A stretch of DNA of 64,000 nt, taken from positions 41,581 through 105,580 of the forward strand of contig JAEUUP010000093.1 in assembly GCA_016787525.1 (NCBI GenBank), in the 5' to 3' direction. Position 1 is the stretch's first letter. Each line of letters starts with the position of its first letter. The position numbers were made by a program, and so were the translations under genes. Origin of the DNA: Saprospiraceae bacterium. Lineage in GTDB: Bacteria > Bacteroidota > Bacteroidia > Chitinophagales > Saprospiraceae. The notes beneath the pieces were generated by a model that had not been told where the DNA came from, did no database searches, and saw only the letters and a list, made by a program, of their open reading frames with translations. Shown piece after piece: positions 39 to 63,399 of the stretch.

Positions 39-327
39 TTTATAGGTATTTTTAAGATGAAAATAAATAGTTTCTCATTGGACTTCGGCTTTCATTTGAA
101 TTATGTAGCGAAAATACGCACACCTATTAACGCATGCAAATGGTTTAAAATTGCCTTAACAGAGTTTAACCTTTTCTTAATGAAAGTCGAGAATTAAAGC
201 TTTCATTTTGTCCATTTCAAGTGATTTTTGAAGGAAAAATGTGCCGAATTTCTTGTTTTTTAGACCCCCTCAGTATCTTGCACGGTCAAATAGAAAAATA
301 AATTTTGATTTAAAATAACACATAATT
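39..327. other. AT-rich intergenic stretch upstream of ruvC
   Basis: No convincing gene is seen. A plus-strand frame is open from 3 to about 197 but has no family resemblance and is probably chance. One copy of the dispersed TACTGAGGGG motif (reverse orientation) lies at 266-275, about 50 nt before the ruvC start. Confidence 0.5.
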
Positions 328-885
328 TTGAAAGAAAAACACCGCATACTCGGCATTGACCCCGGCACCAATTTTTTGGGCTACGCCGTTTTGGAAGTTG
401 ATGGCAAAAAACTCAGCCTTGTGACGATGAGCATCCTCACGCTTTCGCACGTTGACGAGCCGACCGAGAAGCTCAAACGGATTTTTGAAAAAGTTGAATG
501 GGTCATCAAAACATTCAATCCCAACGAGTTAGCCATCGAAGAACCTTTTTATGCCAAAAACATCCAATCTATGCTCAAGCTGGGTCGAGCGCAAGGTGTG
601 GCAATGGCAGCTGCAATGATTCATGGGCTGCCTGTGATGCAATATTTGCCAAAAACTGTGAAAAAAAGTGTCGCTGGCAATGGTAATGCCTCCAAAGAAC
701 AAGTGGCTGCTATGCTCGGACACATCATGAATCGTCCGATTGAGCCTTCATTTTTTGATGCGTCTGATGCTTTAGCTGTTGCCGTTTGTCATCACTATTT
801 GTCCAAAAGTGCCTTAGGTGGTGGTCAAAAACACAACGATTGGAAAAGTTTTGTGAAAGCCAATGCAGATAAGATAGTAAAGTAA
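328..885 (+). CDS. ruvC: Crossover junction endodeoxyribonuclease RuvC
   Basis: This is the Holliday-junction resolvase that acts with RuvAB in homologous recombination and fork repair in the cytoplasm. The N-terminal GIDPGTNFLGYAV carries the first catalytic Asp. IEEPFYAKN supplies the catalytic Glu region, KLGRAQGVAM is the family helix, and DASDALAVAVCHH carries the last acidic residues. The 185-residue length is normal. The start is TTG at 328: an in-frame stop lies at 316-318 and the only sense codons between are not starts, while the core motif begins eight residues in. A dispersed-motif copy starts immediately after the stop codon. ruvA is in the same window at 8769 but in a separate transcription unit. 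Confidence 0.95.
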   Translation: MKEKHRILGIDPGTNFLGYAVLEVDGKKLSLVTMSILTLSHVDEPTEKLKRIFEKVEWVIKTFNPNELAIEEPFYAKNIQSMLKLGRAQGVAMAAAMIHGLPVMQYLPKTVKKSVAGNGNASKEQVAAMLGHIMNRPIEPSFFDASDALAVAVCHHYLSKSALGGGQKHNDWKSFVKANADKIVK

Positions 886-956
886 CCCCCTCAGTATGCC
901 AATTTAAAACGCCCAAAATGCAATATTTTTCTGTGCATACGGTTTTATTAAAAACC

Positions 957-964
957 TAAATTTG
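957..964 (+). promoter_or_regulatory. Putative -7 element of the porZ promoter
   Basis: TAAATTTG matches the Bacteroidota -7 consensus TAnnTTTG and lies 43 nt before the porZ ATG. I see no good -33 TTG at the usual spacing, so only the -7 box is claimed. Confidence 0.45.
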
Positions 965-1007
965 TACTACTTTTTATAAAAAATGAGACATTAATACCTT
1001 ACAAGAT

Positions 1008-3338
1008 ATGACAAAAATATTTCTACGTACAATTCTTCTTGCATTTTTCCCATACCTTCTTTTTTCTCAAAATGATTTGAAAATAGGCGATTGGCGCACT
1101 TATTTGCCCTATCGCACAGGCTTGAGTGTGACTCAATCAGACAATAATGTGTATTGGGCAACGGGTTTGTCGGTTTTGGAAATGAACAAAACGGACTTGA
1201 ATATTGAAAAAATCGACAAACTCAATACGCTAACCGATGTCGGTGTCAGACTGGTGCGTTATAATAAAGATGCCAAGACCTTGTTTGTCGTTTATGAAAA
1301 TAACAATATTGACCTCATTCGTACTGAGGGGTCTGCCAAAAATCTGAATTTGCCCGACATCAAAAACAATAGTTCGATTTTGGGTGATAAGACAATTTAT
1401 GACGTGCATTTTGTGAACGATACGGCTTATTTGGCTTGTGGTTTTGGCATCTCGAAGCTTGATGTCCGCAAAGGAGAGTTTATTTACACCACTTTTACAA
1501 AACTGAAAACGTACAGTATTGTGGTTTTTGAAGGTAAAATTTGGGCAGCTACTGAAGGGGGCATTTACACTGTGCCAAATGACAACCGATTGAACTTGGC
1601 AGACTTCAAAGTGTGGACAAAATTGGATGCAACGGTTGGTTTTCCAAACTCTTACACAACAAAAGTTTTGGCTGTGTATGACAATAAGCTCTATTTCGAC
1701 TTAAACGATTCGCTTGCTGTTTTACAAAACAATACCCCCCTCAGTATTCGGCACGAATCAGGTTTTTCGATTCAATTTATGACAGCCGAAGGGCAAAATC
1801 TGGTCATTGGTTTTTGGAATAAAGATGCAGCAGGCAACGGTAAAACATTGATTTTCAATAAAAATAACACATTCAAAACAGCAGGCGGCAGTTGTGTCAG
1901 TCGTCCTTTGGGAGCTGTGGAAGATGCCACAGGTCGGCTCTATTTTGCTGATTTGTTCAATGGTTTTAGGTTTTTGACAAAAGCGACGGATACGAATTGT
2001 AGTGTCGTCGAATACGATTCGCCTTATGCTAAAGAAGTGAGTGATATTGCTGTGACCGATACTTCGGCGTGGGTTGCTTTCGGCGGTTTGAGTGGTATCA
2101 ATCCGCGCAACAATGGCGAGGGTTTTGCTTCCTTTACAGGTGGCAAATGGCAAAATTTCAACGGCTTTGGTCCTCAAATTTTGAATGATAGCATCATCAA
2201 TCGTGATTTTCACAACGTTGAAATCAATAAAAAAACAGGCAAAATCTATGCAGGTTCAGTCCAAAATGGCTTGGTCGAATTAGTTGGCAATAAAGTGAAT
2301 AAAATTTATAATGCCTCCAACTCGGCTATTCAAGCCGCTTCAGCAGACCCTTTTCGTCGTCGGGTAACAGGGTTGGCATTTGATCAAAGTGGTAATCTGT
2401 GGGTGTCGAATAATCTTTCTGACAATCCTGTCGTGGTCTTAAAAGCAGATGGCAAGTGGGCAAAATTAGGCAATGTGCCAGCCACCAATATTTTTCAAGT
2501 GATTGTGGATGGTTCGGGAACGAAGTGGTTTATCATCAGTGGCTCGCAAACAGGGCTTTTACTCTACAATGAAAATAAAGCGATTGATGATGTTTCGGAC
2601 GATAAAATTACTGTTTTAGATAATTCAAACCTGCCGAAAGAACTGCAAAGTGCGCGTATCAACTACATCACAACGGATTTGAATGGAGAAGTATGGGTTG
2701 GTACATCGGGTGGTGTTTGTGTGTTCCGTTGTGGGAGCGACCCGTTTAAATCAACTTGCAATGCCTCGTTGATTGTCAACTCGTTAGGCAATATCAATGA
2801 ATATTTGTTGCGCGAAAAAAACGTGAATACCATCGCCATAGACGGGGCAAATCGCAAATGGTTTGGTACATCAAGTGGTCTGTTTGTGACCTCAGCCGAT
2901 GGTAAAGAAGAAGTTTTTAAATTCAATACAGAAAACAGTCCATTATTGAGCAATAATATCACAGCTTTGGCAATTCGTCCCAATGGTGAAGTGTTTATTG
3001 GTACCGACAAAGGCTTGATGAGTTTCAAAAGCGAAGCGACTGAGGGGGGGGACTACAATGACCAAACAAAGGTTTTGGCGTATCCAAACCCTGTCAGACC
3101 TGACTACGAAGGTCCAATTGCCATCAAAGGCTTTGCACGAGATGCTAATGTGAAAATTGCGGATGTGAATGGCAATGTGGTGTTTGAAACAAAGGCTCTG
3201 GGTGGTCAAGCGATTTGGAATGGACGGGATTTTAATGGCAATCGCGTGTCAACGGGTGTCTATTTGGTTTTGGCAACGAATACGAAAAATTTAGATGCAC
3301 CCGATGCTGTTGTGACGAAGATTTTATTTATGAATTAG
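1008..3338 (+). CDS. porZ: PorZ-like type IX secretion beta-propeller protein
   Basis: PorZ is a surface component of the T9SS attachment complex that helps process cargo and attach A-LPS at the outer membrane. Residues 1-20 form a signal peptide ending in LLFSQ. The mature start, NDLKIGDWRTYLPYRTG, and the following YWATGLSVLEM and LTDVGVRLV are typical of the PorZ first propeller. The middle holds repeated propeller blades (for example NLWVSNN, EVWVGTSGGVCVF, RKWFGTSSGLFV). The end has a T9SS-type sorting domain starting AYPNPVRPDYEGP and ending STGVYLVLATN. The length, 776 residues, fits the family. Dispersed-motif copies are embedded at 1322, 1737 and 3038 (encoding TEG, PLS and TEG). It may be transcribed alone: a terminator-like hairpin follows. 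Confidence 0.85.
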   Translation: MTKIFLRTILLAFFPYLLFSQNDLKIGDWRTYLPYRTGLSVTQSDNNVYWATGLSVLEMNKTDLNIEKIDKLNTLTDVGVRLVRYNKDAKTLFVVYENNNIDLIRTEGSAKNLNLPDIKNNSSILGDKTIYDVHFVNDTAYLACGFGISKLDVRKGEFIYTTFTKLKTYSIVVFEGKIWAATEGGIYTVPNDNRLNLADFKVWTKLDATVGFPNSYTTKVLAVYDNKLYFDLNDSLAVLQNNTPLSIRHESGFSIQFMTAEGQNLVIGFWNKDAAGNGKTLIFNKNNTFKTAGGSCVSRPLGAVEDATGRLYFADLFNGFRFLTKATDTNCSVVEYDSPYAKEVSDIAVTDTSAWVAFGGLSGINPRNNGEGFASFTGGKWQNFNGFGPQILNDSIINRDFHNVEINKKTGKIYAGSVQNGLVELVGNKVNKIYNASNSAIQAASADPFRRRVTGLAFDQSGNLWVSNNLSDNPVVVLKADGKWAKLGNVPATNIFQVIVDGSGTKWFIISGSQTGLLLYNENKAIDDVSDDKITVLDNSNLPKELQSARINYITTDLNGEVWVGTSGGVCVFRCGSDPFKSTCNASLIVNSLGNINEYLLREKNVNTIAIDGANRKWFGTSSGLFVTSADGKEEVFKFNTENSPLLSNNITALAIRPNGEVFIGTDKGLMSFKSEATEGGDYNDQTKVLAYPNPVRPDYEGPIAIKGFARDANVKIADVNGNVVFETKALGGQAIWNGRDFNGNRVSTGVYLVLATNTKNLDAPDAVVTKILFMN

Positions 3339-3368
3339 GTATTGTATTGAAAATCAATTTTTTACCAT

Positions 3369-3409: not shown

Positions 3410-3432
3410 TTAATATACTGAGGGGGGTATTT

Positions 3433-5922: not shown

Positions 5923-6141
5923 ATTTTAAACGATAATGCCAAACATGGTTTGGCGGCATTTTTTCTAAATTCTAAACAATAAATACTGAGGGGTGCTTAT
6001 TTTGCAAAACAGGATTGAAACGTATTGAAAGTCTAATTCGTGTCGTGCAGCTTTTATTTTTTTATTTCGAGATTGGCTATTCATTATTGATGGATGAGTT
6101 ATTCGTTGATTGGGAGTCATCAATAACGAATAACTAATCAA

Positions 6142-6885
6142 CTATTGACTAATTTGCTCGCCTGTCATACCAAACCTTCTTTCGCGGTCCTGATAGCTTA
6201 AAATAGCTTTATAAAAATCGTCTTTTCTAAAATCGGGCCAATAGGTTTTTGTAAAGTAAAACTCTGCATAAGCTAATTGCCACAATAAGAAATTAGAAAC
6301 ACGAGTTTCACCACTTGTCCGAATCATCAACTCTGGGTCGGGCATACCCGATGTTGAGAGTTCGAGTTCAAACATTTTTTCGTCTATCTCTGACGGTTTT
6401 ATCAGTCCTTTGGTTGCTTTTTCGGCAAGTCGTTGCACCCCCCTCAGTATTTCCCATTTGGCGGAGTAGTTGAGTGCTAAAACGAGCGTCATTTTATCAT
6501 TGTTTTGGGTTTGTTCGATGCCTTCCAACAAGGCTTTGTAGGTAGAAGAAGGCAGTTTTTCGATGTCACCAATAGCTTTCAAACGAATATTATTGCGTTG
6601 CAAAGTAGCAATTTCGGAGCGTACAGTGTCAATCAACAAAGTCATCAAAGCATTGACTTCAAAAGCAGGACGATTCCAGTTTTCAGTCGAAAAAGTATAA
6701 AGTGTCATGTATTTGACACCTAATTCAGCTGCTGCTTCGGTGATTTCACGTACGGTTTTGACACCTTCGCGATGTCCCCACACACGATTCTTACCTTGCG
6801 ATTTTGCCCAACGCCCATTGCCATCCATAATAATAGCAACGTGTTGAGGCAGTTTATCAATATTTATCTGACTTTTTAAATCCAT
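6142..6885 (-). CDS. uppS: Isoprenyl transferase (undecaprenyl diphosphate synthase)
   Basis: UppS condenses isopentenyl diphosphate onto farnesyl diphosphate to make the C55 lipid carrier for peptidoglycan and O-antigen. The signature VAIIMDGNGRWAK holds the catalytic Asp, with HREGVKTVREI, LYTFSTENWNRP, MIRTSGETRVSNFLLWQ and WPDF following in order. The ATG at 6885 (MDLKSQINIDK) is preferred over one further upstream, because a promoter-like TACTTTTG lies in the extension; this gives 247 residues, normal for the family. The dispersed motif at 6440 encodes ILRGVQ within a family-aligned helix, with no insertion relative to the E. coli protein as I recall it. Probably co-transcribed with bamA. 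Confidence 0.95.
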   Translation of the reverse strand: MDLKSQINIDKLPQHVAIIMDGNGRWAKSQGKNRVWGHREGVKTVREITEAAAELGVKYMTLYTFSTENWNRPAFEVNALMTLLIDTVRSEIATLQRNNIRLKAIGDIEKLPSSTYKALLEGIEQTQNNDKMTLVLALNYSAKWEILRGVQRLAEKATKGLIKPSEIDEKMFELELSTSGMPDPELMIRTSGETRVSNFLLWQLAYAEFYFTKTYWPDFRKDDFYKAILSYQDRERRFGMTGEQISQ

Positions 6886-7720: not shown

Positions 7721-8500
7721 TTACAATCTGCGATGCAAAGCGAACAAAGCATTGAGGCACAGCCATGCCAGCATGGCTGTAAAAGATAACTCATAGGCGA
7801 CTGAAAAAAGGAGTTTGGTTTGCAAGTTGAGGTCGAAAAGGCGGTAACTAAAATAGTCTGTTAAAATAAAAGAAGCGTGTATACCAAACAGAATGAATAG
7901 GGTTTTGACCATGCGCTTGAGCCAACCAACGACCAATACGTGTCGCCTACCACTGAGCTGCGTTTTCTTTTTTTGCATCAGTGCATAGCGTTCATGCAAA
8001 ATAAAACGATAAGAGAAATAGAGATAGAGAAAAAACTGCAAGATGAAAACGCCTTTTTCAAAATTGCCATAAAATGGGCTAAAAAACTCGGTACGAAAAG
8101 CTGCTTTGGTCTCAGCACTACGAAAAGTCATCATGCCTAAAAGGGCGATTTGCACTGTTGGCAATATAAAATGCTTAAAATCACTGCGTTTAATATCGAA
8201 ATGACGATACAAACGACTTTTGATATAGTAAAAAAGTAAAGGGCCGAAAGCAAAAGATAGATAAATCGGTAGCACCAATACTGAGGGGTGTCTTTTTGTA
8301 AGCAGCGTAAAGTTTAAAAACTTGTCTAATAATGTCAGTGAAAAAGCAATCAATAAGGCAGCAAACAACCAGTTTGACCATTTATTAGGCTGTGTTTTGC
8401 GGATTAAAAACAAACCAGCTAGACCCAAACCAGACACGACTCCAGCAGCCATTGCTAAAACGGTTAGCCAATGAATGAGGTCGAATAGAATAGGTAGCAT
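7721..8500 (-). CDS. Multi-pass membrane protein, unknown function
   Basis: The 259-residue product has about seven hydrophobic segments, including LIHWLTVLAMAAGVVSGLGL, the WLFAALLIAFSLTLLDKF region, LVLPIYLSFAFGPLLFYYI and FILPTVQIALLGMMTF. The layout resembles the membrane half of Bacteroidota AraC-type membrane regulators, but no DNA-binding helix-turn-helix follows. It could be a stand-alone sensor or a remnant; I cannot assign a function. A dispersed-motif copy at 8279 encodes HPSVL in the loop before the third segment. Confidence 0.6.
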   Translation of the reverse strand: MLPILFDLIHWLTVLAMAAGVVSGLGLAGLFLIRKTQPNKWSNWLFAALLIAFSLTLLDKFLNFTLLTKRHPSVLVLPIYLSFAFGPLLFYYIKSRLYRHFDIKRSDFKHFILPTVQIALLGMMTFRSAETKAAFRTEFFSPFYGNFEKGVFILQFFLYLYFSYRFILHERYALMQKKKTQLSGRRHVLVVGWLKRMVKTLFILFGIHASFILTDYFSYRLFDLNLQTKLLFSVAYELSFTAMLAWLCLNALFALHRRL

Positions 8501-9362: not shown

Positions 9363-9554
9363 TTTTAAAAGAAAAATAAGCTTTGTTAAAATTTTGTTAA
9401 CAAATAACACGTTTTACTTCGTTCTCGTTTGAGAACTGATTTTAATGATTTTGATTTGACAGCACGGATTTTTCCGAGATATATAAATCCGATTAAAATA
9501 CTCAAAAATACTGAGGGGGTGTTTCACAACCCCAATTTGATTCAATATTGCGAC

Positions 9555-16985: not shown

Positions 16986-17010
16986 GATACTGAGGGGGTA
17001 AACTTTCTGA

Positions 17011-18835: not shown

Positions 18836-18956
18836 ATGCAACGATACCCCCTCAGTAATTGAGTAATTTGAGATTCATTGTCTTGTTATAAACAATTGAC
18901 AGTCAATCCAATAAATGATATTCAACCATCAATAAACAATAAAAATAGAATTTGTT

Positions 18957-20423: not shown

Positions 20424-20472
20424 CCCCTCAGTAAAAACACTATTTTTTTTAATAAAAAAAGATTAAGTTTGT

Positions 20473-45430: not shown

Positions 45431-46009
45431 CTATCGAAAATACTGAGGGGGTATGCCATTGGCTTTGGCAATAGTCGCCGTAGGCGGAAATTTGTAGATA
45501 TACGCCAACAGACGATTCAACTCGCTTTGAAAATCCAAATCATTGTCAGGATGGAGTTTTTTGGCTGCTTTCAGAATATTTTCCGTCCGTTTGATAACGT
45601 ATTCCGAAAAAGTATCGGCACGTTTTTGTTTTTCAACCAGCATATCCCAAAAGCGGTCAAATGCGGTATTGAGCAATAAGATGGTCAACTCTACCTCACC
45701 CAATTTGTCTTTCGTGATTTTGACATGCTCGGTTATGCTGGCATTTTCGGAGCGCATAGTCATCATCAATTCGCCTGGTGTTGCCCAATGCATGTAATCG
45801 TTGGAGACATATTTATTGATAGACTGCTTGATTTTCTCAATCCTTTGTTTTAAGTCGCTTTTATCTTCAAAAAACTCAAACGCCAATTTCTCGACCAACG
45901 AAGGGTCTTTACGAAAGAGTTTGAGCAGCAACTTATCTTTTTGTTCTTCTGTCAACATCCGCAACACCTCGAATCGTGGGTCAGGTGCTTTTGCTACTTT
46001 CTTTGCCAT
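45431..46009 (-). CDS. Hypothetical helical protein, 192 residues
   Basis: The protein is charged and probably all-helical (TEEQKDKLLLKLFRKDPSLVEKL, KQRIEKIKQSINKYVS), with no signal peptide or membrane segment. I do not recognise a family. It starts 5 nt after the stop of the MFS transporter gene on the same strand, so the two form an operon. The last residues, GIPPQYFR, are encoded by a dispersed-motif copy (45441), so the motif forms the C-terminus. Confidence 0.65.
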   Translation of the reverse strand: MAKKVAKAPDPRFEVLRMLTEEQKDKLLLKLFRKDPSLVEKLAFEFFEDKSDLKQRIEKIKQSINKYVSNDYMHWATPGELMMTMRSENASITEHVKITKDKLGEVELTILLLNTAFDRFWDMLVEKQKRADTFSEYVIKRTENILKAAKKLHPDNDLDFQSELNRLLAYIYKFPPTATIAKANGIPPQYFR

Positions 46010-51706: not shown

Positions 51707-52516
51707 ATGGTTGAATATGCTTTCTTGAATGGTGAAATAATGCCAATAGAAAACGCCAATTTAAACATCACAGACCTTGCATTACTGAGGGGATACGGTG
51801 TGTTTGATTTTTTCAAAGCAATTGATGGTCGTCCAATTTTTATGGAAGACCATTTAGATAGGTTTGAAAGCTCTACTTGGTTATTGGGATTGAAAATTCC
51901 TTATACACGTGATGAGTTAAAGAAGAATATTTTAGAGTTAGTGAAACTCAATAAACATAAACTATTAGGTATCAAATTAGTATGCACTGGAGGCTACTCC
52001 ATTGATGGATACGCGCCCGCAGAAAAGCCTAATCTATTTATGGTTGCCAAACCATTTATTATGCACCCTTTTGAGAAAGAGTTGAGTCTGATAACTGTTG
52101 AACATCAACGCGAATTGGCAGAAATAAAAAGTATCAATTATATAAAGCCTATTTCTGTATTAGCACAATTGCGTATATCAGAGGCTGATGATGTATTATA
52201 CTATAGTGATGGTTATATAACAGAATCATCGCGGAGCAATATTTTTATTGTAAAAAATGGGCTTTTGGTTACACCTGACACAGGAATACTAAAAGGTATT
52301 ACACGGAAAAAAATTTTGCAGTTCGCTTCTGAAATTTTGCCTATTGAAATTCGCCCAGTAAAGCTAGAAGAGGTTTTAGAGGCTGACGAAGTTTTTATGA
52401 CTGGTAGCACTAAAAGAATTACTCCAATTACAAAAATTGATAATAAATCATTTCAAACTGGTCATTTTACACGTACTTTATACAACAGGTTGCTTGTTGA
52501 AGAAAATCTCAGTTAG
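51707..52516 (+). CDS. Class IV aminotransferase (PLP)
   Basis: Fold-type IV PLP enzyme, as in D-amino-acid and branched-chain aminotransferases and aminodeoxychorismate lyase. Typical segments are MVEYAFLNGEIMP, LLRGYGVFDFF, LDRFESSTWLLGL, a likely PLP Lys at about 147 in INYIKPISVLAQ, ITESSRSNIFIV and VTPDTGILKGITRKKIL, then DEVFMTGSTKRITPI. It is 269 residues. It forms an operon with the oxoprolinase gene, which suggests a joint role in amino-acid or glutamate turnover. The motif at 51783 encodes part of the conserved LLRGYG turn. Confidence 0.85.
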   Translation: MVEYAFLNGEIMPIENANLNITDLALLRGYGVFDFFKAIDGRPIFMEDHLDRFESSTWLLGLKIPYTRDELKKNILELVKLNKHKLLGIKLVCTGGYSIDGYAPAEKPNLFMVAKPFIMHPFEKELSLITVEHQRELAEIKSINYIKPISVLAQLRISEADDVLYYSDGYITESSRSNIFIVKNGLLVTPDTGILKGITRKKILQFASEILPIEIRPVKLEEVLEADEVFMTGSTKRITPITKIDNKSFQTGHFTRTLYNRLLVEENLS

Positions 52517-54473: not shown

Positions 54474-55919
54474 ATGGTTTTTAATTTCAAGCAAGAAGAA
54501 CCATCTATCATAAAAGTAATAGGTGTCGGTGGTGGCGGCTCAAATGCCGTTACACACATGTACAAACAAGGTATTATCGGTGTTGATTTCGCCATTTGCA
54601 ACACAGATTCGCAGGCAATGGAATTGAGTCCTGTGCCTACACGGATTCAACTCGGTCCTTCTGTTTCAGCGGGTTTGGGCGCAGGTTCGCAACCACAACG
54701 GGGCAAACAAGCCTGTCTCGAAAGCATCGAAGACGTGAAACGTTATCTTGAGAATGGTACAAAAATGCTCTTTATCACAGCTGGTATGGGTGGCGGCACA
54801 GGTACAGGTGCAGCACCTATTATTGCCAAAACAGCGCAAGAGATGGGCATTCTGACTGTCGCTATTGTGACTTTACCTTTTACTTTCGAAGGTAAAAAAC
54901 GGGTCACACAGGGTGTTGATGGTTTAGAAGAATTGAAGAAAAACGTGGATACCATCATCGTTATCTCGAACGACAAATTGCGCCAGATTTATGGCAATAT
55001 GTCTGTATCTCATGCTTTTGCACAGGCTGATAATATCTTAACAACTGCTGCCAAAGGCATTGCCGAAATCATCACTGTGCCAGGCTATGTCAATGTAGAC
55101 TTTGAAGATGTGAATACTGTAATGCGTGGTTCAGGTGTGGCTATCATGGGTATCGGTGTGGCCGAAGGTGAAAACCGTGCTTTGAAAGCTGTGGATGCTG
55201 CTTTGTCTTCTCCGCTATTAGAAGACAATAACATTCAAGGTGCTAAACATATCTTGGTCAACATCACAAGTGGTACGAAAGAAGTAACAATGGACGAAAT
55301 ATTCGGTGTCACTGAATTCGTTCAAGAAGAAGCAGGTGAAGGTGCTAACTTGATTTGGGGTAATTGCTACGACGATACTTTGGGTGATAAAGTGGCTGTC
55401 ACAGTCATTGCCACAGGTTTTGAAAGCCGTATGTCACCAAATGCTCAACAAGGTCGCAATGATGGAAAAATTGTTGTTTCGTTGGATGAAGAACCTAAAA
55501 AAGACAAAAAGCCTGATTTTTTCGGGTTTGGCTTTGAAAATACTGAGGGGTCAAACTCTGTGATTGAGTTTGAGTCTGAGCGTTTTTCAAAGCCTAAATC
55601 GCCAGCTTTCAACTTCAACCAAGCACCTGCGCAAATGCCTCAACCCGCAAAAGTGGAAACTAATGAGGAAGACCGTCGCCGTAAATTGGTACAAGAACAA
55701 GCACGTCGCGAACGTTTGCGTTCAAGTGTCAATACCTTGAAACTGAGCAATCCACAAACCATTATCGAAATGGAAAACGAACCCGCTTACTTGCGTCGTG
55801 GTGTTAAATTGGATTCTGTTCAATACTCATCTGAACGTATGACATCCAATTGGTCTATTGACGAAAATGATGAATTGAGAACATCAGGTAATTCGTTTTT
55901 ACACGATAATGTTGATTAA
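54474..55919 (+). CDS. ftsZ: Cell division protein FtsZ
   Basis: FtsZ is the tubulin homologue that forms the Z-ring. VGGGGSNAV near the start, GMGGGTGTGAAP (GTP-binding signature, about 106-117) and VNVDFEDVNTV (T7 loop) are intact. A long linker follows from about 330, rich in Lys/Glu/Pro/Gln. The C-terminal region includes the basic EEDRRRKLVQEQARRERLR segment and ETIIEMENEPAYLRRG-like end common in Bacteroidota. 481 residues. The motif copy at 55541 (NTEG) is in the variable linker, not the folded domain. Confidence 0.95.
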   Translation: MVFNFKQEEPSIIKVIGVGGGGSNAVTHMYKQGIIGVDFAICNTDSQAMELSPVPTRIQLGPSVSAGLGAGSQPQRGKQACLESIEDVKRYLENGTKMLFITAGMGGGTGTGAAPIIAKTAQEMGILTVAIVTLPFTFEGKKRVTQGVDGLEELKKNVDTIIVISNDKLRQIYGNMSVSHAFAQADNILTTAAKGIAEIITVPGYVNVDFEDVNTVMRGSGVAIMGIGVAEGENRALKAVDAALSSPLLEDNNIQGAKHILVNITSGTKEVTMDEIFGVTEFVQEEAGEGANLIWGNCYDDTLGDKVAVTVIATGFESRMSPNAQQGRNDGKIVVSLDEEPKKDKKPDFFGFGFENTEGSNSVIEFESERFSKPKSPAFNFNQAPAQMPQPAKVETNEEDRRRKLVQEQARRERLRSSVNTLKLSNPQTIIEMENEPAYLRRGVKLDSVQYSSERMTSNWSIDENDELRTSGNSFLHDNVD

Positions 55920-55937: not shown

Positions 55938-56558
55938 TCATATCGCTGCCTCATTCACTTCTGTGAATGGGGCATTTTTTTTCATTGCCACCATACCCCT
56001 CAGTATCGGCTTCATTCTTTCAAAAGTTAGACGCATCGTTGCACAAGTCTTAAAGCCCATTTTCTCATAAAACGCAATAGCTTCGAGGCTTGTATCCATG
56101 GCTTTGAGCCAAACGACTTCTTTTTGTAACTCTTGTCCTATGGTGAAAGTGTAGTCAACGAGCATTCTGCCAATACCTCTGCCCTGCCCTTGTTTTGTCA
56201 AATAGATGCGCTCTAATTCAAGGGCATTTTCAATTTCTTCGCTGTCAAAAGTCTCTAATTGTAAAACGTCGGATTGGCAACGGTTTTTACTGAGGGGGTA
56301 GTTTTGATTGATTTTCAAAAAGCCGAGCGGTTCTTTGTCATCTTCTACTCCAAAAAATAGCGCGTTTTCGTCAGACAATTCTAAGCGGAGTTGTTCCACA
56401 TTAAAACATTTTTCTGCGTACCATTCGCCTGCGTCAAACCACAAATGCCTGTAATGGTCAAAATAAGCCTTTAGAGCGACTTTCGACAACCAGGCTGCAT
56501 CGTCAATGGTCAACGGGAAGATTCGCACACTGTTTTTTATGTATTCTGCTTGTATCAT
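55938..56558 (-). CDS. GNAT-family N-acetyltransferase
   Basis: The acetyl-CoA binding motif is clear: LERIYLTKQGQGRGIGRMLVDY, with QGRGIG as the pyrophosphate loop, then WLKAMDTSLEAIAFYEKMGFK. The substrate is unknown. 206 residues. Two motif copies (55996, 56288) encode ILRG and PLS. The last residues (NAPFTEVNEAAI) are encoded inside the ftsZ terminator hairpin. Confidence 0.85.
   Translation of the reverse strand: MIQAEYIKNSVRIFPLTIDDAAWLSKVALKAYFDHYRHLWFDAGEWYAEKCFNVEQLRLELSDENALFFGVEDDKEPLGFLKINQNYPLSKNRCQSDVLQLETFDSEEIENALELERIYLTKQGQGRGIGRMLVDYTFTIGQELQKEVVWLKAMDTSLEAIAFYEKMGFKTCATMRLTFERMKPILRGMVAMKKNAPFTEVNEAAI
55947..55983 (+). terminator. ftsZ terminator, overlapping the GNAT gene's 3' end
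   Basis: TGCCTCATTCAC-TTCT-GTGAATGGGGCA with a run of eight T. It lies 28 nt after the ftsZ stop and inside the final codons of the convergent GNAT gene. Confidence 0.85.
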
Positions 56559-56731: not shown

Positions 56732-58420
56732 CTATGGTTTTACATTTGTTTTATCCAAACACTTGAATAGGTCGCGCAAAATATCCATATCGTATATTTC
56801 ATAATCTTCGTAGCCAATACTCCATGACACACGTACGGCATCTAACTCCGATTGCGTCAACTCAATCGTTTCTGGGATAATGAGTTGTGCGCGGAAGGTG
56901 GTTGTACCTTTGTCAACATCTACTGCGCCTATGTCTGTCTTTTGCGTAGCTAAACTGACCTTTTTACCATTGATGAAACGGAAAATAATGTATGAACCAC
57001 GGTCTAAAAAGCCAAAGGTACGCTGGGCTTCTTTTGATTGAACAGTAAGAACCAGATTGAGATACACAACGCGGCTACCTTCCACCCTCGTAGCGGTTGC
57101 CAAACAGGTGACGTAGTCTTTGTCTTTCATAGCATTGCGCATAAAATCGTCGGTGTGGGTAAACAAGACGATAGGCGTGGTTTCTTGTTTCTTTTTGCCT
57201 GTAAAGTTATCCATGCCATCGAATGCCAAATTGCAATTCATCATTGAGGGTGTGTTCATCAGAACATCATCTTTAGTATCGAGTTTTTTGTAAACAATAC
57301 TGGTTTTACTCGACTCTGAACGGGGTTTTGTGGCTACTTTTTTGGTTTCTTTTTTCTTTTTTTCAGTTTCTTTCGGCTCGTTTGTTTCAGTGGTGGATGC
57401 AGGCGGCGTATCTGTGGCAGCAATGTCTCCAACAGTTTCTGTATTGGTCACTGGCGGCGTGTCTATGAGTTTTGTTGATGGCTTTTTTTCTTTTTTCGAT
57501 TTGGCTTTCTGAGCGGTTGATTTATTGTTTTTTGATTCCTTTACGGCTGTTTCATTTTGGGTAATGGTATCAGCAGCTAAGGTTTGTTGTGCTGTTGTTT
57601 CAGATGGCACAACCGTTTCTTCTGTTTTCGTAGGTTCGTTATTGGGAGCAGGTGTTTGGTTTTTGGGGGTGTTTTTGTTTTTTGAGTTGCTGCTTTTCTT
57701 GGGTCGCGGCATGGTTTCCGCAGAAAGCATGTCGGGTTCGGTTTGTTCGGTTTTGGTTTGTGTTTTTTTGGCGGTTTTAGTTGCCGAAGCGGATTCTTTT
57801 TTCTTGTTTTTGGTTTCGCTTTTGGTGGATTTTGTTGATTGTGCTACCCCCTCAGTATTCGACGGTGTTGATTGGCTCGGTTGACTTTCCAATTGGGTCA
57901 TTGTTGGCGATGCAGGTTTGGTCTTTGTTTTTTCTTTCTTCTTGGATGCGGTTGCAGGTGCTTCGGTTGCTTGTGCAACGGGGAGGGTATTGGCTTCGTT
58001 GCCCAACTTGATTTCGCCGTACCTTTTCTCATATTCACTGATGAATTTCGCTCGTTTGGAAGGGCTTTCGCTTAATATTTCAGTCACATCCACTAATAGG
58101 TTTGTGGCGTAACGTCGCTTTTGGAGCAATTCATCTTCTTTGGTTTTGAAGGTTTTTATTTCCGCTTCTACACGCTTTTTCTCTACTTTTGCAGCCTTTG
58201 ATGGATTGTCTTGGAGGTCTGTCAAGTCTTCCTCAAGGCGTATGCGTTTACTTTTGATGTCTTCCAATTCTTCCGATGCGACTCTATTGCGTTCTTGTGC
58301 CACATTGAGCAACTGATTGGCTTTTTGTAGGTCTTTAACGGGGTCTTGTGCTTTTAAGGGCAACCAAATGACCATTAGTAGAACCATCAGCGACCCAATA
58401 AATTTATGTTTGACAGTCAT
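56732..58420 (-). CDS. Secreted coiled-coil protein with Lys/Thr/Glu-rich linker
   Basis: I recognise no family. A signal peptide (MTVKHKFIGSLMVLLMVIWL, ending PLKAQ) is followed by a coiled coil (about 28-110: LQKANQLLNVAQERNRVASE, EKKRVEAEIKTFKTKEDELL), a low-complexity Lys/Thr/Ser/Glu/Pro linker (about 140-385) and a compact C-terminal domain (about 390-562) with VVYLNLVLTVQSKEAQRTFG and LDRGSYIIFRFINGKKVSLA. It looks like a periplasmic or outer-membrane scaffold with a beta-sheet domain; that is inference. 562 residues. A motif copy at 57848 encodes NTEGVAQ in the linker. Confidence 0.6.
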   Translation of the reverse strand: MTVKHKFIGSLMVLLMVIWLPLKAQDPVKDLQKANQLLNVAQERNRVASEELEDIKSKRIRLEEDLTDLQDNPSKAAKVEKKRVEAEIKTFKTKEDELLQKRRYATNLLVDVTEILSESPSKRAKFISEYEKRYGEIKLGNEANTLPVAQATEAPATASKKKEKTKTKPASPTMTQLESQPSQSTPSNTEGVAQSTKSTKSETKNKKKESASATKTAKKTQTKTEQTEPDMLSAETMPRPKKSSNSKNKNTPKNQTPAPNNEPTKTEETVVPSETTAQQTLAADTITQNETAVKESKNNKSTAQKAKSKKEKKPSTKLIDTPPVTNTETVGDIAATDTPPASTTETNEPKETEKKKKETKKVATKPRSESSKTSIVYKKLDTKDDVLMNTPSMMNCNLAFDGMDNFTGKKKQETTPIVLFTHTDDFMRNAMKDKDYVTCLATATRVEGSRVVYLNLVLTVQSKEAQRTFGFLDRGSYIIFRFINGKKVSLATQKTDIGAVDVDKGTTTFRAQLIIPETIELTQSELDAVRVSWSIGYEDYEIYDMDILRDLFKCLDKTNVKP

Positions 58421-58868: not shown

Positions 58869-61007
58869 ATGAAAGCGCGTCATTCTAAAATCTATTTCTT
58901 TTTTCTCTTCATTCATTCATCTTTATTGATGCAAGCTCAGACTATGCAAAAAAACAAAGCCATTTACCCGACCACTCGCCAAGATGCGACCGTCGTTGAT
59001 GACTATCATGGAACGAAAGTTGCCGATCCGTACCGCTGGTTAGAGGACGATAATTCAGCAGAAACCAAAGACTGGGTCAAAAAACAAAATGAGGTCACGT
59101 ATAGCTATCTCGAAAAAATACCTTATCGCCAAGCCATCAAAGGACGCATCGAAAAGCTCTGGAATTATGAAAAATTCGGCTCGCCTTTCAAACGTGGTGG
59201 CAAGTATTATTTCTACAAGAACGACGGTTTACAAAATCAGTCGGTTCTCTATGTCCAAAACGATCTCAATTCCCCCCCCTCAGTAGTCATTGACCCAAAC
59301 ACGCTCTCGAAAGACGGGACAGTGGCTTTGGGTTCGATTTCTTTCAACAAAGCTGGCGACAAAATGGCTTACCAACTCGCCAAAGCGGGTTCGGATTGGC
59401 AAACCATCTATGTCAAAGATTTGACAACGGGCAAGGATTTAAAAGAGGAACTCAACTGGGTCAAATTTTCGGGTATCGCTTGGCAAGGCGATGGTTTCTA
59501 TTACTCCAAATACCCTACGCCAGACGCAGGTAAGGAATTGACTGCTAAGGCTGAGTTCGGCAAATTGTACTTTCACAAACTCGGTACGCCACAAACCGAC
59601 GACGTTTTGGTGATGGAGGATACCGAAAACAAAAATCGCCGTTTCGGTGCTGAAACAACCGAAGACCAGCGTTTTCTTATTGCCTACCCTACTGAAAGTA
59701 CGAAAGGCAATATGCTCAAAATCAAAGACTTAAAAACCAATGGCGATTGGGTAACGGTGGCAAATGATTTCAAAAATGATTGGAATGTGATAGAAAATGA
59801 CGGAGACTGGGTGCTAATCATGACAGACTACAATGCTCCGCGCAGTCGCATCATCGCTATCAACCCAACGATGCCCGAAGAAAAAAATTGGAAAACCATC
59901 ATTCCCGAAAGCCCTACCGATGTCTTGCAAGGCGCAAGCATTGTCGGTGGAAAGTTGGCAACTTATTGGTTACACAATGCCTCAAGTCAAGTCAAGTTCT
60001 ACGACTTGTCGGGAAAGTTTCTGAACGAATTGACATTGCCCAGCATCGGTACTGTAGGCGGCATCAGTGGCAAACGTGACGAAGACCAAGCTTTTTATTC
60101 GTTTTCAAGTTTCACAAGACCGAATACGATTTACAAATTAGACCTCAAAACAATGAAGTCAACCATTTTCAAAGCTCCGAAAGTGGATTTCAACTCTGAC
60201 AATTACGTGACCAAACAAGTGTGGTACACCTCGAAAGATGGAACAAAAGTGCCGATGTTTGTCACAATGAAAAAAGGTACAAAACTAACGGGCAAGAATC
60301 CCACTTTACTCTACGGCTATGGTGGATTTAATATTTCCATGACTCCAGGATTCAGTGTATCTCGTGCGGCATTGTTGGAGATGGGCGGCATTTACGCCGT
60401 GGCTAATCTGCGAGGCGGTGGCGAATTTGGCGAAGAGTGGCACGCTGCTGGCACAAAGGAGCGCAAACAAAATGTATTCGACGACTTTATTGGAGCAGCC
60501 GAATACCTTATCAAAGAAAAATACACCTCTTCCGATTATTTGGCGATACACGGCGGCTCAAACGGCGGGCTTTTAATCGGAGCTTGCATGACTCAGCGAC
60601 CAGAGTTGTTCCGTGTGGCCTTACCTGCGGTCGGTGTTTTGGATATGTTGCGCTACGACAAATTCACGATTGGGCGTGCATGGGCAACCGACTACGGTTT
60701 GAGCGAAGAGAAAGACGGTTTTGATTATCTCTACAAGTTTTCGCCACTACACAATATCAAAAAAGGCGTAAAGTATCCAGCTACAATGGTAACGACTGGC
60801 GACCACGACGATAGGGTTGTGCCTGCGCACTCTTTCAAATTTGCTGCCGCACTACAAGAAGCCCAAGCGGGCGAACACCCAGCCTTAATTCGTATTGAAG
60901 TCGCCGCAGGTCACGGTGCTGGCAAGCCAACAGCTAAAGTCATCCAAGAACAAGCGGACATCTATGCGTTTATGTTTTACAGCATGGGTTTAGTGCCTAA
61001 ATTGTAG
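58869..61007 (+). CDS. Prolyl oligopeptidase (S9A)
   Basis: Serine peptidase cleaving short peptides after proline. A signal peptide (FFLFIHSSLLMQAQT) places it outside the cytoplasm. The N-terminal YPTTRQDATVVDDYHGTKVADPYRW-type start, a seven-blade propeller (about 90-430) and an alpha/beta-hydrolase domain follow. The nucleophile Ser is in HGGSNGGLLIGACM (about 563), Asp in GDHDDRVVPAHSF (about 645) and His in VAAGHGAGKPTA (about 681). 712 residues, the family norm. A motif copy with eight C (59276) encodes SPPSVV in the propeller; another follows the stop. Confidence 0.93.
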   Translation: MKARHSKIYFFFLFIHSSLLMQAQTMQKNKAIYPTTRQDATVVDDYHGTKVADPYRWLEDDNSAETKDWVKKQNEVTYSYLEKIPYRQAIKGRIEKLWNYEKFGSPFKRGGKYYFYKNDGLQNQSVLYVQNDLNSPPSVVIDPNTLSKDGTVALGSISFNKAGDKMAYQLAKAGSDWQTIYVKDLTTGKDLKEELNWVKFSGIAWQGDGFYYSKYPTPDAGKELTAKAEFGKLYFHKLGTPQTDDVLVMEDTENKNRRFGAETTEDQRFLIAYPTESTKGNMLKIKDLKTNGDWVTVANDFKNDWNVIENDGDWVLIMTDYNAPRSRIIAINPTMPEEKNWKTIIPESPTDVLQGASIVGGKLATYWLHNASSQVKFYDLSGKFLNELTLPSIGTVGGISGKRDEDQAFYSFSSFTRPNTIYKLDLKTMKSTIFKAPKVDFNSDNYVTKQVWYTSKDGTKVPMFVTMKKGTKLTGKNPTLLYGYGGFNISMTPGFSVSRAALLEMGGIYAVANLRGGGEFGEEWHAAGTKERKQNVFDDFIGAAEYLIKEKYTSSDYLAIHGGSNGGLLIGACMTQRPELFRVALPAVGVLDMLRYDKFTIGRAWATDYGLSEEKDGFDYLYKFSPLHNIKKGVKYPATMVTTGDHDDRVVPAHSFKFAAALQEAQAGEHPALIRIEVAAGHGAGKPTAKVIQEQADIYAFMFYSMGLVPKL

Positions 61008-61028
61008 TGGTTATACTGAGGGGGGTCG

Positions 61029-61067: not shown

Positions 61068-61334
61068 TTAATGGTTGGTTTTTTAAGCCAAAACGTGTAT
61101 TTTGTTGCTCTTTTTCATTGTTTCTTAAACAAAAATTAAGTTCAATTTAAGTTATTAGCAGTCGTAAGAACTTGAATGTCTTTGCCATTTTAGAAACATT
61201 GAATGTCGTTTTGAAAAAAACTAAGGTAATAATCCAAAAGTTTATCAATTTTGTACTTTTCAAATCTTCTCAATACCTTATTTACTGAGGGGGTAACATT
61301 TTTATTAATCCAATAGCGTAAAGCACTTTAACAA
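61068..61334. other. Leader of the Septu operon
   Basis: AT-rich, no gene. CAATTTTG at 61246-61253 is one base off the -7 consensus. A motif copy is at 61283-61292, 42 nt before the ptuA ATG. I see no retron-like non-coding RNA or reverse transcriptase gene here. Confidence 0.4.
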
Positions 61335-62651
61335 ATGAGAATAAAAGAGCTTCATCTAACCAATTTTAGAGGATTCGAACAGTTAGACATTGTTTTTCCG
61401 AATCGTTTGGCTGTTTTTATTGGCATCAATGGTGCTGGCAAATCTGCTGTGATAGATGCTATGAGTTTGTATTTAATGCAGTTAGTCATTGGTCTTACTC
61501 GTGGAAGCCTATTGGGTACATTTCAAGATACAATAGATAAAAATATAAAAAACGGGCAATCTGCATCAACCTTAACTTTTGATTTAGAATACAAGGATTT
61601 AACTGACTTAAACCTATTGATGACTATAAAAAAGGATACAGATTTCCCTTCGAGTATAAATTACACTACATCTTTAGAAACATTTTTTGATATTATATAT
61701 GCCAACAAAACTGCAAAATTCATCAACGCTGCATTAAACCTACCTGTTTTCATACATTATGGCAGCAATAGAGCGAATGAGGGTGAGTCACAGATACAAC
61801 TTCAAAGCCGTATTCCGCTTCCTCAATTCAAAATTTATCAAAACGCTTTCTTTCATTCAATAAACAATTTTTCAGATTTCATTAATTGGTTCAAAGAAGA
61901 AGAAGACAGAGAAAAAGACTTAATCATTGCTGAGAAAAATTTTGATGCAAAAAATACGAATTTAGAAACCATCAGACGTACCATTACGACATTTTTACAA
62001 TATCTCAATCAGGATACAACTTTTTCAGATTTAAAAATCAATCGCCATACAAACACCTTCAACGATTTCAAAGCCAATGGCACATATGTATTAACGATTA
62101 AAAAAAGAGGAGAAACCTTTGACCTTTCGCAATTGTCGGATGGCGAAAAGACAATCTTGATGTTGGTTTGCGACATAGCCCGCCGCCTAACAATCGCAAA
62201 CCCTATCCTCGAAAATCCATTGGCAGGCGAAGGTATCGTTCTCATAGACGAAATAGATTTACACTTGCACCCTCAGTGGCAACGTGAAGTAGTGCCAGCT
62301 TTATTAGCAACATTTTCGAATCTGCAATTCATCGTCACGACACATTCGCCACAAGTATTGAGCAAAGTCAAAAGAGAAAGTGTGTTTGTGTTAGAAGATG
62401 GTAAATTGGTGAAAAACATACCTCAAACTTACGGTCGCAATGCGTCTGCTATTTTATTCGAAATATTTGGTGTCACGGATAGACCGACTGATGTACAAGA
62501 CAAAATCAATCGTTGTTCCGATTTATTGGACGAAGAAAGGTATGATGAAGCTAAAGCTTTGCTCAAAGAATTAACTGATTTGTTGGGAGAGCAAGATGAA
62601 GCCGTCATTGGGGCAAGAACACAACTTTTGTTTGACAATCAAACGATATAA
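61335..62651 (+). CDS. ptuA: Septu-type ATPase PtuA (AAA_15/21, RecF/OLD-like)
   Basis: PtuA is the ATPase of the Septu anti-phage system; it forms a complex with the PtuB nuclease. The SMC/RecF-like start MRIKELHLTNFRGFEQLDIV leads to Walker A GINGAGKS (30-37). The ABC signature is LSQLSDGEKTILMLVCDIAR (about 264-285), Walker B GIVLIDEIDLHLHP (about 299-312), and the His switch VTTHSPQVLSKV (about 334). The C-terminal segment DRPTDVQDKINRCSDLLDEE is common to PtuA-like proteins. 438 residues. ptuB starts 4 nt after its stop. No motif copy inside, unlike most genes this long, which fits recent acquisition (inference). Confidence 0.88.
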   Translation: MRIKELHLTNFRGFEQLDIVFPNRLAVFIGINGAGKSAVIDAMSLYLMQLVIGLTRGSLLGTFQDTIDKNIKNGQSASTLTFDLEYKDLTDLNLLMTIKKDTDFPSSINYTTSLETFFDIIYANKTAKFINAALNLPVFIHYGSNRANEGESQIQLQSRIPLPQFKIYQNAFFHSINNFSDFINWFKEEEDREKDLIIAEKNFDAKNTNLETIRRTITTFLQYLNQDTTFSDLKINRHTNTFNDFKANGTYVLTIKKRGETFDLSQLSDGEKTILMLVCDIARRLTIANPILENPLAGEGIVLIDEIDLHLHPQWQREVVPALLATFSNLQFIVTTHSPQVLSKVKRESVFVLEDGKLVKNIPQTYGRNASAILFEIFGVTDRPTDVQDKINRCSDLLDEERYDEAKALLKELTDLLGEQDEAVIGARTQLLFDNQTI

Positions 62652-62654
62652 TGT

Positions 62655-63335
62655 ATGAAGTGGATTAACAAAAACCGAGAAAACCAACCAGCTTCGCTCA
62701 AACGTCATCTGACAACACCGCATCATAATTACGACAACTATAAAGAAAAAGACGAATTGCGTGACGCTTTGCTCAAAGAGCAAGGCTTTATTTGCTGTTA
62801 TTGTATGCAGAGAATACAAGAAGCTAATAAAAATAAGATGGAGATTGAACACTTCAGACCACAAAGTATTTATGATGGCACAAATGGCAAACCCGATTTG
62901 ACGCTTGATTATACCAATCTACTAGCATCTTGTAAAGGCAACGAAGGTTCGCTCAAACATTTGCAACATTGCGACGAGCATAAAGGAAACGATGAAGTCG
63001 AGATAAATCCGATGAACAAAGACCTCATGGGAAAAATACGTTTCAATGCAGCAGGTCGTATTTTTGTATCAGAAACCAATGAGTTAGACAAAAGATTGAA
63101 CCATGATTTGAATCATACACTCAATTTGAATATCCAAACTTTAGTGACGGAAAGGAAGAAAATATGGCAAACACTCGAACAACGTATGCGAAAAGAGTTT
63201 GGCACTAAAAACCCATCCAAAAGTTTTATCAATCAAAAAATTAAAGAATGGTCGGCACAAGACGAAGGTAAGTTCAAAACAATGTGCCAAGTCGCTATCT
63301 ATTATTTGGAAAAAAAATTGAAAAAAGCCGTATGA
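62655..63335 (+). CDS. ptuB: Septu-type HNH endonuclease PtuB (TIGR02646-like)
   Basis: PtuB is the effector nuclease of Septu. Zinc/HNH residues are seen in GFICCYCMQRIQ (about 45-56), KMEIEHFRPQS (about 62-72), YTNLLASCKGNEGS and HCDEHKGNDEVEINPMN. The C-terminal half is helical and charged (WQTLEQRMRKEFGTKNP). 226 residues. It forms an operon with ptuA. The pairing of a RecF-like ATPase with this HNH family is diagnostic for type I Septu; retron Ec78-type systems use the same pair but need a reverse transcriptase, which is absent here. Confidence 0.88.
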   Translation: MKWINKNRENQPASLKRHLTTPHHNYDNYKEKDELRDALLKEQGFICCYCMQRIQEANKNKMEIEHFRPQSIYDGTNGKPDLTLDYTNLLASCKGNEGSLKHLQHCDEHKGNDEVEINPMNKDLMGKIRFNAAGRIFVSETNELDKRLNHDLNHTLNLNIQTLVTERKKIWQTLEQRMRKEFGTKNPSKSFINQKIKEWSAQDEGKFKTMCQVAIYYLEKKLKKAV

Positions 63336-63399
63336 CATTGCACCCCCTCAGTATCAAACTGTTTTTTGAATTATGGGTTGAACATACACTTTCACATCC

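What the first reader, a model, noticed from the sequence alone, without database searches (positions are those of the whole stretch)
265..63353. A 10-mer, TACTGAGGGG, is massively over-represented: a candidate DNA uptake sequence in a Bacteroidota
Seen: 59 exact copies by hand count (29 plus, 30 minus) and three one-mismatch copies in 64 kb, roughly one per 1.1 kb; chance predicts about 0.1. About 21 lie between genes (34% of copies in well under a quarter of the sequence). Known: Neisseria DUS and Haemophilus USS have this density, no strand bias and intergenic enrichment, whereas Chi and KOPS are strongly strand-biased. HIP1 of cyanobacteria is palindromic; this motif is not. Inference: a sequence-specific DNA uptake mark, or another genome-wide recognition site. 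I know of no such motif described in this phylum.
Basis: partly seen in the sequence, partly recalled or inferred. Interest (0 to 1): 0.93.

Follow-up and report, generated by a model that had tools for sequence, protein, structure and literature searches.

The report
A new bacterial DNA-uptake tag
A ten-letter DNA word occurs 6,920 times in one Bacteroidota genome and at similar density in three phage contigs; it likely marks the bacterium's own kind of DNA for uptake, which would be a self-DNA tag outside the two bacterial families known for one, in a genome where searches found no type IV pilus motor or pilin.

Summary
The window has 59 exact TACTGAGGGG (29 plus, 30 minus; shuffles give 0.03). 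The whole genome (7.27 Mb, a Saprospiraceae by its nearest hits) has 6,920; none of 823 other genomes of the phylum, 397 of them of the same family, has more than 14. Copies show no strand or gene-direction bias, are spaced more evenly than chance, and are about 1.5 times denser between genes. New here: the core sits in about 110 bp of A-tracts phased at 10.5 bp, strongest on one side, the one-sided phased layout of the Haemophilus uptake signal (seen again here in three Pasteurellaceae phages), but longer. Three IMG/VR phage contigs carry the word at 0.76-0.94 per kb, as temperate Pasteurellaceae phages carry their hosts' signal. The genome has comF, comEC and a four-HHH ComEA-like gene in a row, and dprA; searches for T4P ATPases and prepilins found nothing convincing. 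Best reading: a DNA-uptake sequence evolved apart from the two known systems and read by something other than a type IV pilus. Uptake itself is untested. It works like DUS/USS, but is not filed as a member of either.

The parts
266..275 (-). TACTGAGGGG copy 1 of 59
887..896 (-). copy 2
1322..1331 (+). copy 3, in porZ
1737..1746 (-). copy 4, in porZ
3416..3425 (+). copy 5
5984..5993 (+). copy 6
6440..6449 (-). copy 7, in the undecaprenyl diphosphate synthase gene
8279..8288 (+). copy 8
9509..9518 (+). copy 9, in sprA
9768..9777 (-). copy 10, in sprA
11534..11543 (-). copy 11, in sprA
13491..13500 (-). copy 12, in sprA
13974..13983 (-). copy 13, in sprA
15434..15443 (-). copy 14, in sprA
16190..16199 (-). 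copy 15, in sprA
16988..16997 (+). copy 16, just after sprA
18252..18261 (+). copy 17
18848..18857 (-). copy 18
20424..20433 (-). copy 19
21313..21322 (+). copy 20
23395..23404 (-). copy 21
24640..24649 (-). copy 22
25582..25591 (-). copy 23
26133..26142 (+). copy 24
26733..26742 (+). copy 25
27582..27591 (-). copy 26
28333..28342 (-). copy 27
30861..30870 (+). copy 28
31319..31328 (+). copy 29
31630..31639 (-). copy 30
32697..32706 (-). copy 31, left arm of the window's one close inverted pair
32718..32727 (+). copy 32, right arm of that pair
33359..33368 (+). copy 33
35514..35523 (-). copy 34
35856..35865 (+). copy 35
36106..36115 (+). copy 36
37419..37428 (-). copy 37
38564..38573 (+). copy 38
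39063..39072 (-). copy 39
40037..40046 (+). copy 40
41843..41852 (+). copy 41
43733..43742 (+). copy 42
44039..44048 (+). copy 43
45441..45450 (+). copy 44
46645..46654 (-). copy 45
48074..48083 (-). copy 46
48433..48442 (+). copy 47
49368..49377 (-). copy 48
49878..49887 (-). copy 49
50449..50458 (+). copy 50
51783..51792 (+). copy 51
55541..55550 (+). copy 52
55996..56005 (-). copy 53
56288..56297 (+). copy 54
57848..57857 (-). copy 55
59276..59285 (-). copy 56
61014..61023 (+). copy 57
61283..61292 (+). copy 58
63344..63353 (-). copy 59

Best explanation
The word, consensus W-TACTGAGGGG-K inside helically phased A-tracts and present 6,920 times, is likely a DNA-uptake sequence: a competent cell's surface machinery would bind such DNA, predicted to be curved, in preference to other DNA, take it in and recombine it. 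Shown here: count, spread over the genome, symmetry, spacing, flank phasing, presence in phage contigs, and the competence genes. Inferred: that cells are competent, that the word raises uptake, and that preferential uptake plus recombination (molecular drive) filled the genome and its resident prophages with it. With no convincing T4P ATPase or prepilin found, the receptor would be something else. An untested candidate is the TonB-dependent barrel encoded downstream of comF-comEC-HHH.
For: 6,920 copies in 7.27 Mb, reversed control 3. Sharp core: 382 exact against 57 one-mismatch copies in 387,775 b. No strand bias (chi2 36.4, 34 segments) and no gene-direction bias (sense 329, antisense 348 of 677). 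Gap CV 0.79 against a simulated mean of 0.996, minimum 0.917 of 500. 10.5-bp A+T phasing upstream: power 299 for 893 copies; five decoy words (148 to 809 copies; power grows with copy number) at most 16.3, the size-matched one (809) 5.5; holds in genes (673) and between them (213). AA/TT oscillates, TA does not follow. The same kind of count on 51 USS from three Pasteurellaceae phages shows AT peaks at +4/+5 and +16. Three phage contigs carry the word: 25 copies in 26,484 b and 28 in 36,799 b, 23 in 29,382 b held of a 42,293-b record; one has a phage integrase. Upstream phasing: t = 5.64 (25 copies), 2.19 (14 copies held of the second) and 5.5 (17); 42 chance copies elsewhere t = -0.83. Temperate Pasteurellaceae phages accumulate USS (PMC6776037, passages). 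comF, comEC and a 4x HHH_3 protein in a row; DprA. Riemerella, also Bacteroidota, transforms with ComEC, DprA, ComF, RecA, an HHH protein and a predicted outer-membrane barrel (PMC8459023, abstract, passages, sections 19 and 20).
Against: No uptake data, and no cultured strain is known to me. Searches for PilB/PilT-type ATPase and N_methyl prepilins found nothing convincing in this genome, while both known uptake-sequence systems use T4P; secretin and other pilus parts were not searched. The word is absent (at most 14 copies) from all 397 other family genomes searched, whereas DUS/USS are shared within their families. Close inverted pairs, frequent for Neisseria DUS, are rare: 8 opposite-strand pairs within 30 nt among 726 copies. 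Most Neisseria DUS are intergenic (PMC2397512, passage); here 216 of 900 are. Competence genes are common in the family without the word (comEC in 372 of 398), so they do not discriminate. Phasing over five turns is longer than in USS. Depletion in conjugative DNA rests on one contig chosen after the fact, and several short contigs that I did not annotate are as poor.
Confidence: 0.7

Rival explanations
1. An architectural site: gyrase or a nucleoid protein wraps about 110 bp of phased A-tract DNA anchored by the core, organising chromosome and phage DNA alike.
For: Phasing reaches about -55 and +59, longer than in USS; phage copies show the phased upstream side too; even spacing.
Against: Gyrase and HU-type proteins are widely shared (recalled), yet none of 823 other genomes has more than 14 copies. 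An architectural protein need not demand an exact 10-mer. I recall no genome that uses thousands of exact copies this way.
Confidence: 0.12
2. A packaging signal: a gene-transfer agent or transducing phage loads DNA that carries the word, so transfer and drive go by transduction rather than transformation.
For: Phage contigs carry the word at high density; terminase-binding sites can be bent (recalled); would give the same drive.
Against: Two of the motif-rich phages have terminases of different families; no GTA was looked for beyond that; at one per kb selection of fragments would be weak.
Confidence: 0.06
3. A Chi-like or 'self' mark: a nuclease (RecBCD/AddAB or a defence enzyme) spares or switches at the word, so host and phages keep it.
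For: Phages would be selected to carry it, and three phage contigs do.
Against: Chi acts on the single strand and is usually oriented with replication (recalled); here no strand bias, and helical phasing over about 110 bp of duplex has no role in such a model. RecBCD/AddAB genes were not searched.
Confidence: 0.06
4. A HIP1-like by-product of methylation-linked repair: a methyltransferase and mismatch repair create and hold the word.
For: HIP1 shows that a lineage can fill its genome with a word (PMC4390886, abstract and passages).
Against: HIP1 is palindromic and tied to methyltransferases of inner palindromes; this word is not palindromic, and phased flanks are unexplained.
Confidence: 0.04
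5. Assembly or sequencing artefact.
For: Only one genome among 824 carries it.
Against: Reading frames stay open through the copies; sense phase 0, which would put TGA in frame, is never used (0 of 677); at 32 of 36 site-relative pairs in sprA the relative is ungapped at the word; the word is dense in IMG/VR records with four different metagenome numbers.
Confidence: 0.01

Closest known systems
Pasteurellaceae uptake signal sequence (Hin-USS AAGTGCGGT)
   Same: Thousands of genome copies (PMC1626085, passages); 17 each in HP1, HP2 and Aaphi23; sharp core; AT segments about one and two helical turns to one side of the core (51 USS measured here); carried by temperate phages.
   Different: Different core; phasing runs five turns and weakly to the other side; no convincing T4P ATPase or prepilin; one lineage rather than a family among genomes searched.
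Neisseriaceae DNA uptake sequence (DUS, GCCGTCTGAA)
   Different: DUS has no flanking motifs (PMC1626085, passage), often forms inverted-pair terminators and lies mostly between genes (PMC2397512, passages), and comes in dialects across the family (PMC3630211, passages).
Riemerella anatipestifer natural transformation
   Same: Bacteroidota; ComEC, ComF, DprA and an HHH protein needed; a predicted outer-membrane barrel with carboxypeptidase-regulatory domain and other proteins unlike known machinery (PMC8459023).
   Different: 'Uptake sequence' and 'specific sequence' do not occur in that paper's main text; here an uptake tag is inferred.
HIP1 of cyanobacteria
   Same: Genome-wide over-represented word whose role is not settled.
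   Different: Palindromic and tied to methyltransferases; this word is not palindromic, methylation untested.
Chi / KOPS
   Same: Short over-represented recognition words (recalled).
   Different: Strand-biased and far less over-represented (recalled); no strand bias here.

Membership tests
DUS/USS uptake sequences | Thousands of exact copies, about one per kb, genome-wide | tested here: met
   6,920 in 7,267,541 b, reversed word 3
DUS/USS uptake sequences | Non-palindromic 9-12 bp core, both strands equal, no gene-direction bias | tested here: met
   472 plus of 900; sense 329, antisense 348 of 677
DUS/USS uptake sequences | More even spacing than chance (recalled for USS) | tested here: met
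   Gap CV 0.79 vs 0.996 simulated; 20 gaps under 100 bp vs 79.8 expected
USS | AT-rich segments spaced by about one helical turn to one side of the core | tested here: met
   the same count recovers it for USS. Extends further here
USS | Carried by temperate phages of the host | tested here: met
   Three motif-rich IMG/VR records; integrase in one, AAA+HTH protein read as MuB-like in another (naming inferred), no sign either way in the part of the remaining one that was scanned. Host not proven
DUS | Frequent close inverted pairs acting as terminators | tested here: not met
   8 opposite-strand pairs within 30 nt among 726 copies
DUS/USS uptake sequences | Depleted in recently acquired elements | tested here: inconclusive
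   One conjugative contig (TrwC relaxase): 10 copies in 20,000 b and 3 in 6,252 b; chosen after seeing the density. Short contigs L089, L187, L188, L198 and L200 have 0.28-0.49 per kb and were not annotated
DUS/USS uptake sequences | Shared across the family, with dialects | tested here: not met
   At most 14 copies in any of 397 other family genomes; no DUS-like word in 80 Bacteroidota loci of 4.6-21.7 kb, mostly Saprospiraceae (the shortest have little power, as a 4-kb piece of G000 also gave none), nor in the further relatives, where HP1 was the positive control. Nearest held relatives are distant (best ComEC 42%)
DUS/USS uptake sequences | ComEC, DprA, ComF, periplasmic HHH protein | tested here: met
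DUS/USS uptake sequences | Type IV pilus with minor-pilin receptor | tested here: not met
   T2SSE: four hits in G000, all under the curated cut-off, best E 7.1e-5 (37 of 39 candidates scored); N_methyl: none of 19 candidates; genome 98% complete; secretin not searched
DUS/USS uptake sequences | Word raises DNA uptake in a competent strain | not testable with these tools
   Needs an experiment
Chi / KOPS | Strand bias along replichores | tested here: not met
   81 plus, 80 minus in the longest segment, 160 kb; chi2 36.4, 34 segments. Full replichores not available
HIP1 | Palindromic, matched by a methyltransferase | tested here: not met
   The word is not palindromic, as the sequence shows; methylation not tested

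The most novel reading that the evidence does not exclude
A DNA self-recognition system evolved a third time, in Bacteroidota: a curved, roughly 110-bp uptake tag read by a pilus-independent outer-membrane receptor, with temperate phages keeping the tag.
Probability: 0.55. Interest if true: 0.93.

Novelty: new variant of a known kind. Interest (0 to 1): 0.88.

Why it matters
Uptake signals are described for Pasteurellaceae and Neisseriaceae; a 2013 paper calls these two groups unique in this (PMC3630211, passage). A separate case in another phylum, without a type IV pilus found, would show that self-DNA tagging can arise with other machinery, would give a bait (the tagged DNA) to find the unknown outer-membrane DNA receptor of Bacteroidota, and would let the old question, selfish drive or selected 'safe sex' (PMC2397512, abstract), be tested on an independent origin. 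It may also let phages be assigned to this host by sequence alone.

Tried and rejected
An apparent all-plus run on contig C6 was an artefact of the truncated listing; the fetched sequence is balanced. Close inverted pairs as terminators: too rare to explain the word. Dialects in relatives: no DUS-like word in the 80 loci, nor in the relatives' comEC loci or related phages. Prophage in this genome: one terminase relative at 38% on a 3,244-b contig with 4 copies, too short to use. TonB barrel as receptor: no match in 8 relatives' 20-kb comEC stretches, which is only suggestive; ComF, DLH, SDR and Trx gave none there either. The downstream phase measure is also positive in chance copies (t = 2.97) and negative in the second phage (t = -0.69), so only the upstream side is used as evidence in phages. 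A pooled phage value of t = 6.0 (n = 42) counts 3 copies twice, since L154 is 99.98% identical to the first phage; I use the separate values. One-mismatch copies at core position 7 (0-based) show no phasing (t = 0.18, n = 26), the larger other classes do. Five viral scans for other pair spacings and orientations (3, 7, 0, 2 and 8 stretches) found the two known motif-rich records again and one further; the other stretches show only the pair or a few copies in a local repeat.
Full report
Observation. The window holds 59 exact TACTGAGGGG, 29 plus and 30 minus; 100 shuffles average 0.03. There are 9 one-mismatch copies, not three. The window lies at G000:C102:41581-105580 in a genome of 7,267,541 b in 169 contigs, 98% complete; that genome has 3,457 + 3,463 = 6,920 copies, and the word read backwards occurs 3 times.

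Whose genome. The window codes for type IX secretion proteins (PorZ; the 2,518-aa ORF at 9429-16985 I take as SprA, a name from recall). The 80 best loci by RNase Y in genome contigs (a capped list) are Bacteroidota records, mostly Saprospiraceae, at most 72% identical, so I call it a Saprospiraceae by inference.

Distribution. In (99 other relatives; 397 other genomes of the family; 394 others of the phylum), together 823 distinct genomes by handle, none exceeds 14 copies. The only same-genus genome, G001, has 3. But the relatives held are distant: SprA 55% in G001, best ComEC 42% in the family. Metagenome proteins with 61-68% ComEC identity exist (22 of the best 120 listed), and their DNA could not be searched, so the word may belong to an unsampled clade rather than one species.

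Fine structure. I took 56 stretches of G000, 960,073 b, with 900 copies. Consensus: A or T before the core (85%), G or T after it (94%). Sense 329 and antisense 348 within genes; the frame that would read TGA is never used. Strand counts per segment fit 1:1 (chi2 36.4, 34 segments). Gaps are more even than chance (CV 0.79 against 0.996), with 20 under 100 bp where 79.8 are expected. Between genes the density is about 1.5 times that within genes; genes were called by a simple script of mine, so the fractions are rough. Of the window genes tested, only SprA found relatives among the loci at hand; there 32 of 36 site-relative pairs are ungapped at the word (G001 is counted twice), so copies mostly replace residues and are not insertions.

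Flanks. A+T content around the core oscillates with a 10.5-bp period: peaks near -11, -22, -33, -43 and -54, and weaker ones at +7, +17 and further, in 893 copies. Power at 10.5 bp is 299 upstream and 53 downstream; five decoy words reach at most 16.3 upstream and 8.8 downstream. Power grows with copy number and the decoys have 148 to 809 copies; the size-matched one (809) has 5.5 and 8.8. The decoy at 16.3, ACTGAG, can include near-miss copies of the word. The pattern is in genic and intergenic copies alike. AA/TT swings from 0.45 to 1.59 of its mean while TA does not follow it, as expected for phased A-tracts; curvature itself is predicted, not measured. Written as CCCCTCAGTA, the strong phased side lies 3' of the core, as in the H. 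influenzae USS, whose AT segments lie about one helical turn apart (PMC1626085, passages). The same kind of count on 51 USS copies of phages HP1, HP2 and Aaphi23 finds AT peaks at +4/+5 and +16. Phasing of this kind speaks for recognition of duplex DNA on one face and against single-strand (Chi) or RNA roles; this step is inference.

Phages. A scan of IMG/VR for close inverted pairs gave 15 stretches. Four of the 15 records were counted whole: two are motif-rich, with 25 copies in 26,484 b and 28 in 36,799 b; two have only the pair. The stretches held of the other 11 show only the pair. The first has terminase, portal, head, sheath and baseplate proteins and an AAA+HTH protein that I read as MuB-like (naming inferred); the second has a terminase of another family, a virion protein and a DNA methyltransferase. 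Six other relatives of the first terminase (47-65%) have no copy in the stretches held; a further record, L154, is 99.98% identical to the first over 4,429 b and has 3 copies, so it is the same phage under another metagenome number. A third motif-rich record, found, has 17 copies in 20,354 b and 6 in another 9,028 b (no overlap), with tape measure, integrase and antirepressor. The first phage shares no protein match with the second, and one 46-residue weak match with the third; the second and third share a faint terminase match (36% over 81 residues) and one other weak match. Upstream phasing is present: t = 5.64 (25 copies, first), 2.19 (14 held copies, second) and 5.5 (17, third); 42 chance copies in other viral contigs show none (t = -0.83). 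In Pasteurellaceae almost all prophages accumulate USS while phages with large, likely lytic genomes do not (PMC6776037, passages); HP1, HP2 and Aaphi23 have 17 each. That the hosts of the three contigs are this lineage is inferred from the word.

Machinery. comF (10064-10789), comEC (7935-10058), a four-HHH_3 ComEA-like gene (6723-7931), an MltA/3D gene (5403-6470) and a TonB-dependent barrel (2773-5319) follow each other on the minus strand of L135; DprA is on C142. The HHH gene lies beside comEC in 5 of 8 relatives' stretches, the barrel gave no match in any of the 8. A T2SSE search gave four hits in G000, all under the curated cut-off, and N_methyl none; G017 of the same family has strong hits to both (a pilus or type II secretion locus) and lacks the word. 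Secretins and other pilus parts were not searched. Riemerella transforms with ComEC, ComF, DprA, RecA and four proteins unlike known transformation machinery, among them an HHH protein and a predicted outer-membrane protein with a carboxypeptidase-regulatory domain (PMC8459023, abstract, passages and sections 19 and 20).

Foreign DNA. One conjugative contig (TrwC relaxase, coupling protein, resolvase) has half the usual density, 13 copies in 26,252 b, and the longest gap, 6.9 kb. It was picked because it was poor, and five short contigs that I did not annotate are as poor, so this is weak.

Reading. Taken together this is what an uptake sequence spread by biased uptake and recombination would leave. 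It works like DUS/USS; I do not file it as a member of either, because T4P and family-wide sharing were tested and not met. The main rival is an architectural site, since the phasing is longer than that of USS; its absence from every other genome searched speaks against it.

Literature. Searches for 'DNA uptake sequence' with Bacteroidota (none) or Bacteroidetes (five papers), for the word itself (18 papers), and searches listed, by titles and abstract starts, no described uptake sequence in this phylum; several of these lists were capped. Most subscription papers are not held, so this is not proof.

Noticed in passing
window 31975-32765: Array of about 22-bp tandem repeats (25 registers of 22 nt), overlapping the inverted pair of the word at its right end.
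   Followed up: no
window 63314-63837: 42-bp tandem repeats, 9 registers, near the window's end.
   Followed up: no
window 27300, 33115, 33177, 44342, 58635: Dispersed, partly palindromic element around TTGTACGCTTTTTTT...GCAAAAAA, 5 copies at 75% or more; REP-like or terminators, not studied.
   Followed up: no
L141 (G000:C136): Conjugative element with TrwC relaxase, TrwB/TraG coupling protein and a serine resolvase; half the usual density of the word and the longest desert, 6.9 kb.
   Followed up: partly
L112, L114, L116 (G017): A family relative with strong T2SSE and N_methyl hits on one contig (type IV pilus or type II secretion locus) but without the word.
   Followed up: no
P0002-P0023: A clade of ComEC proteins 61-68% identical to this one, seen in the protein search; in the family genomes searched the best is 42%.
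   Followed up: no
L164:10225-11631: Motif-rich phage encodes a protein matching both ParB-like and DNA methyltransferase families.
   Followed up: no
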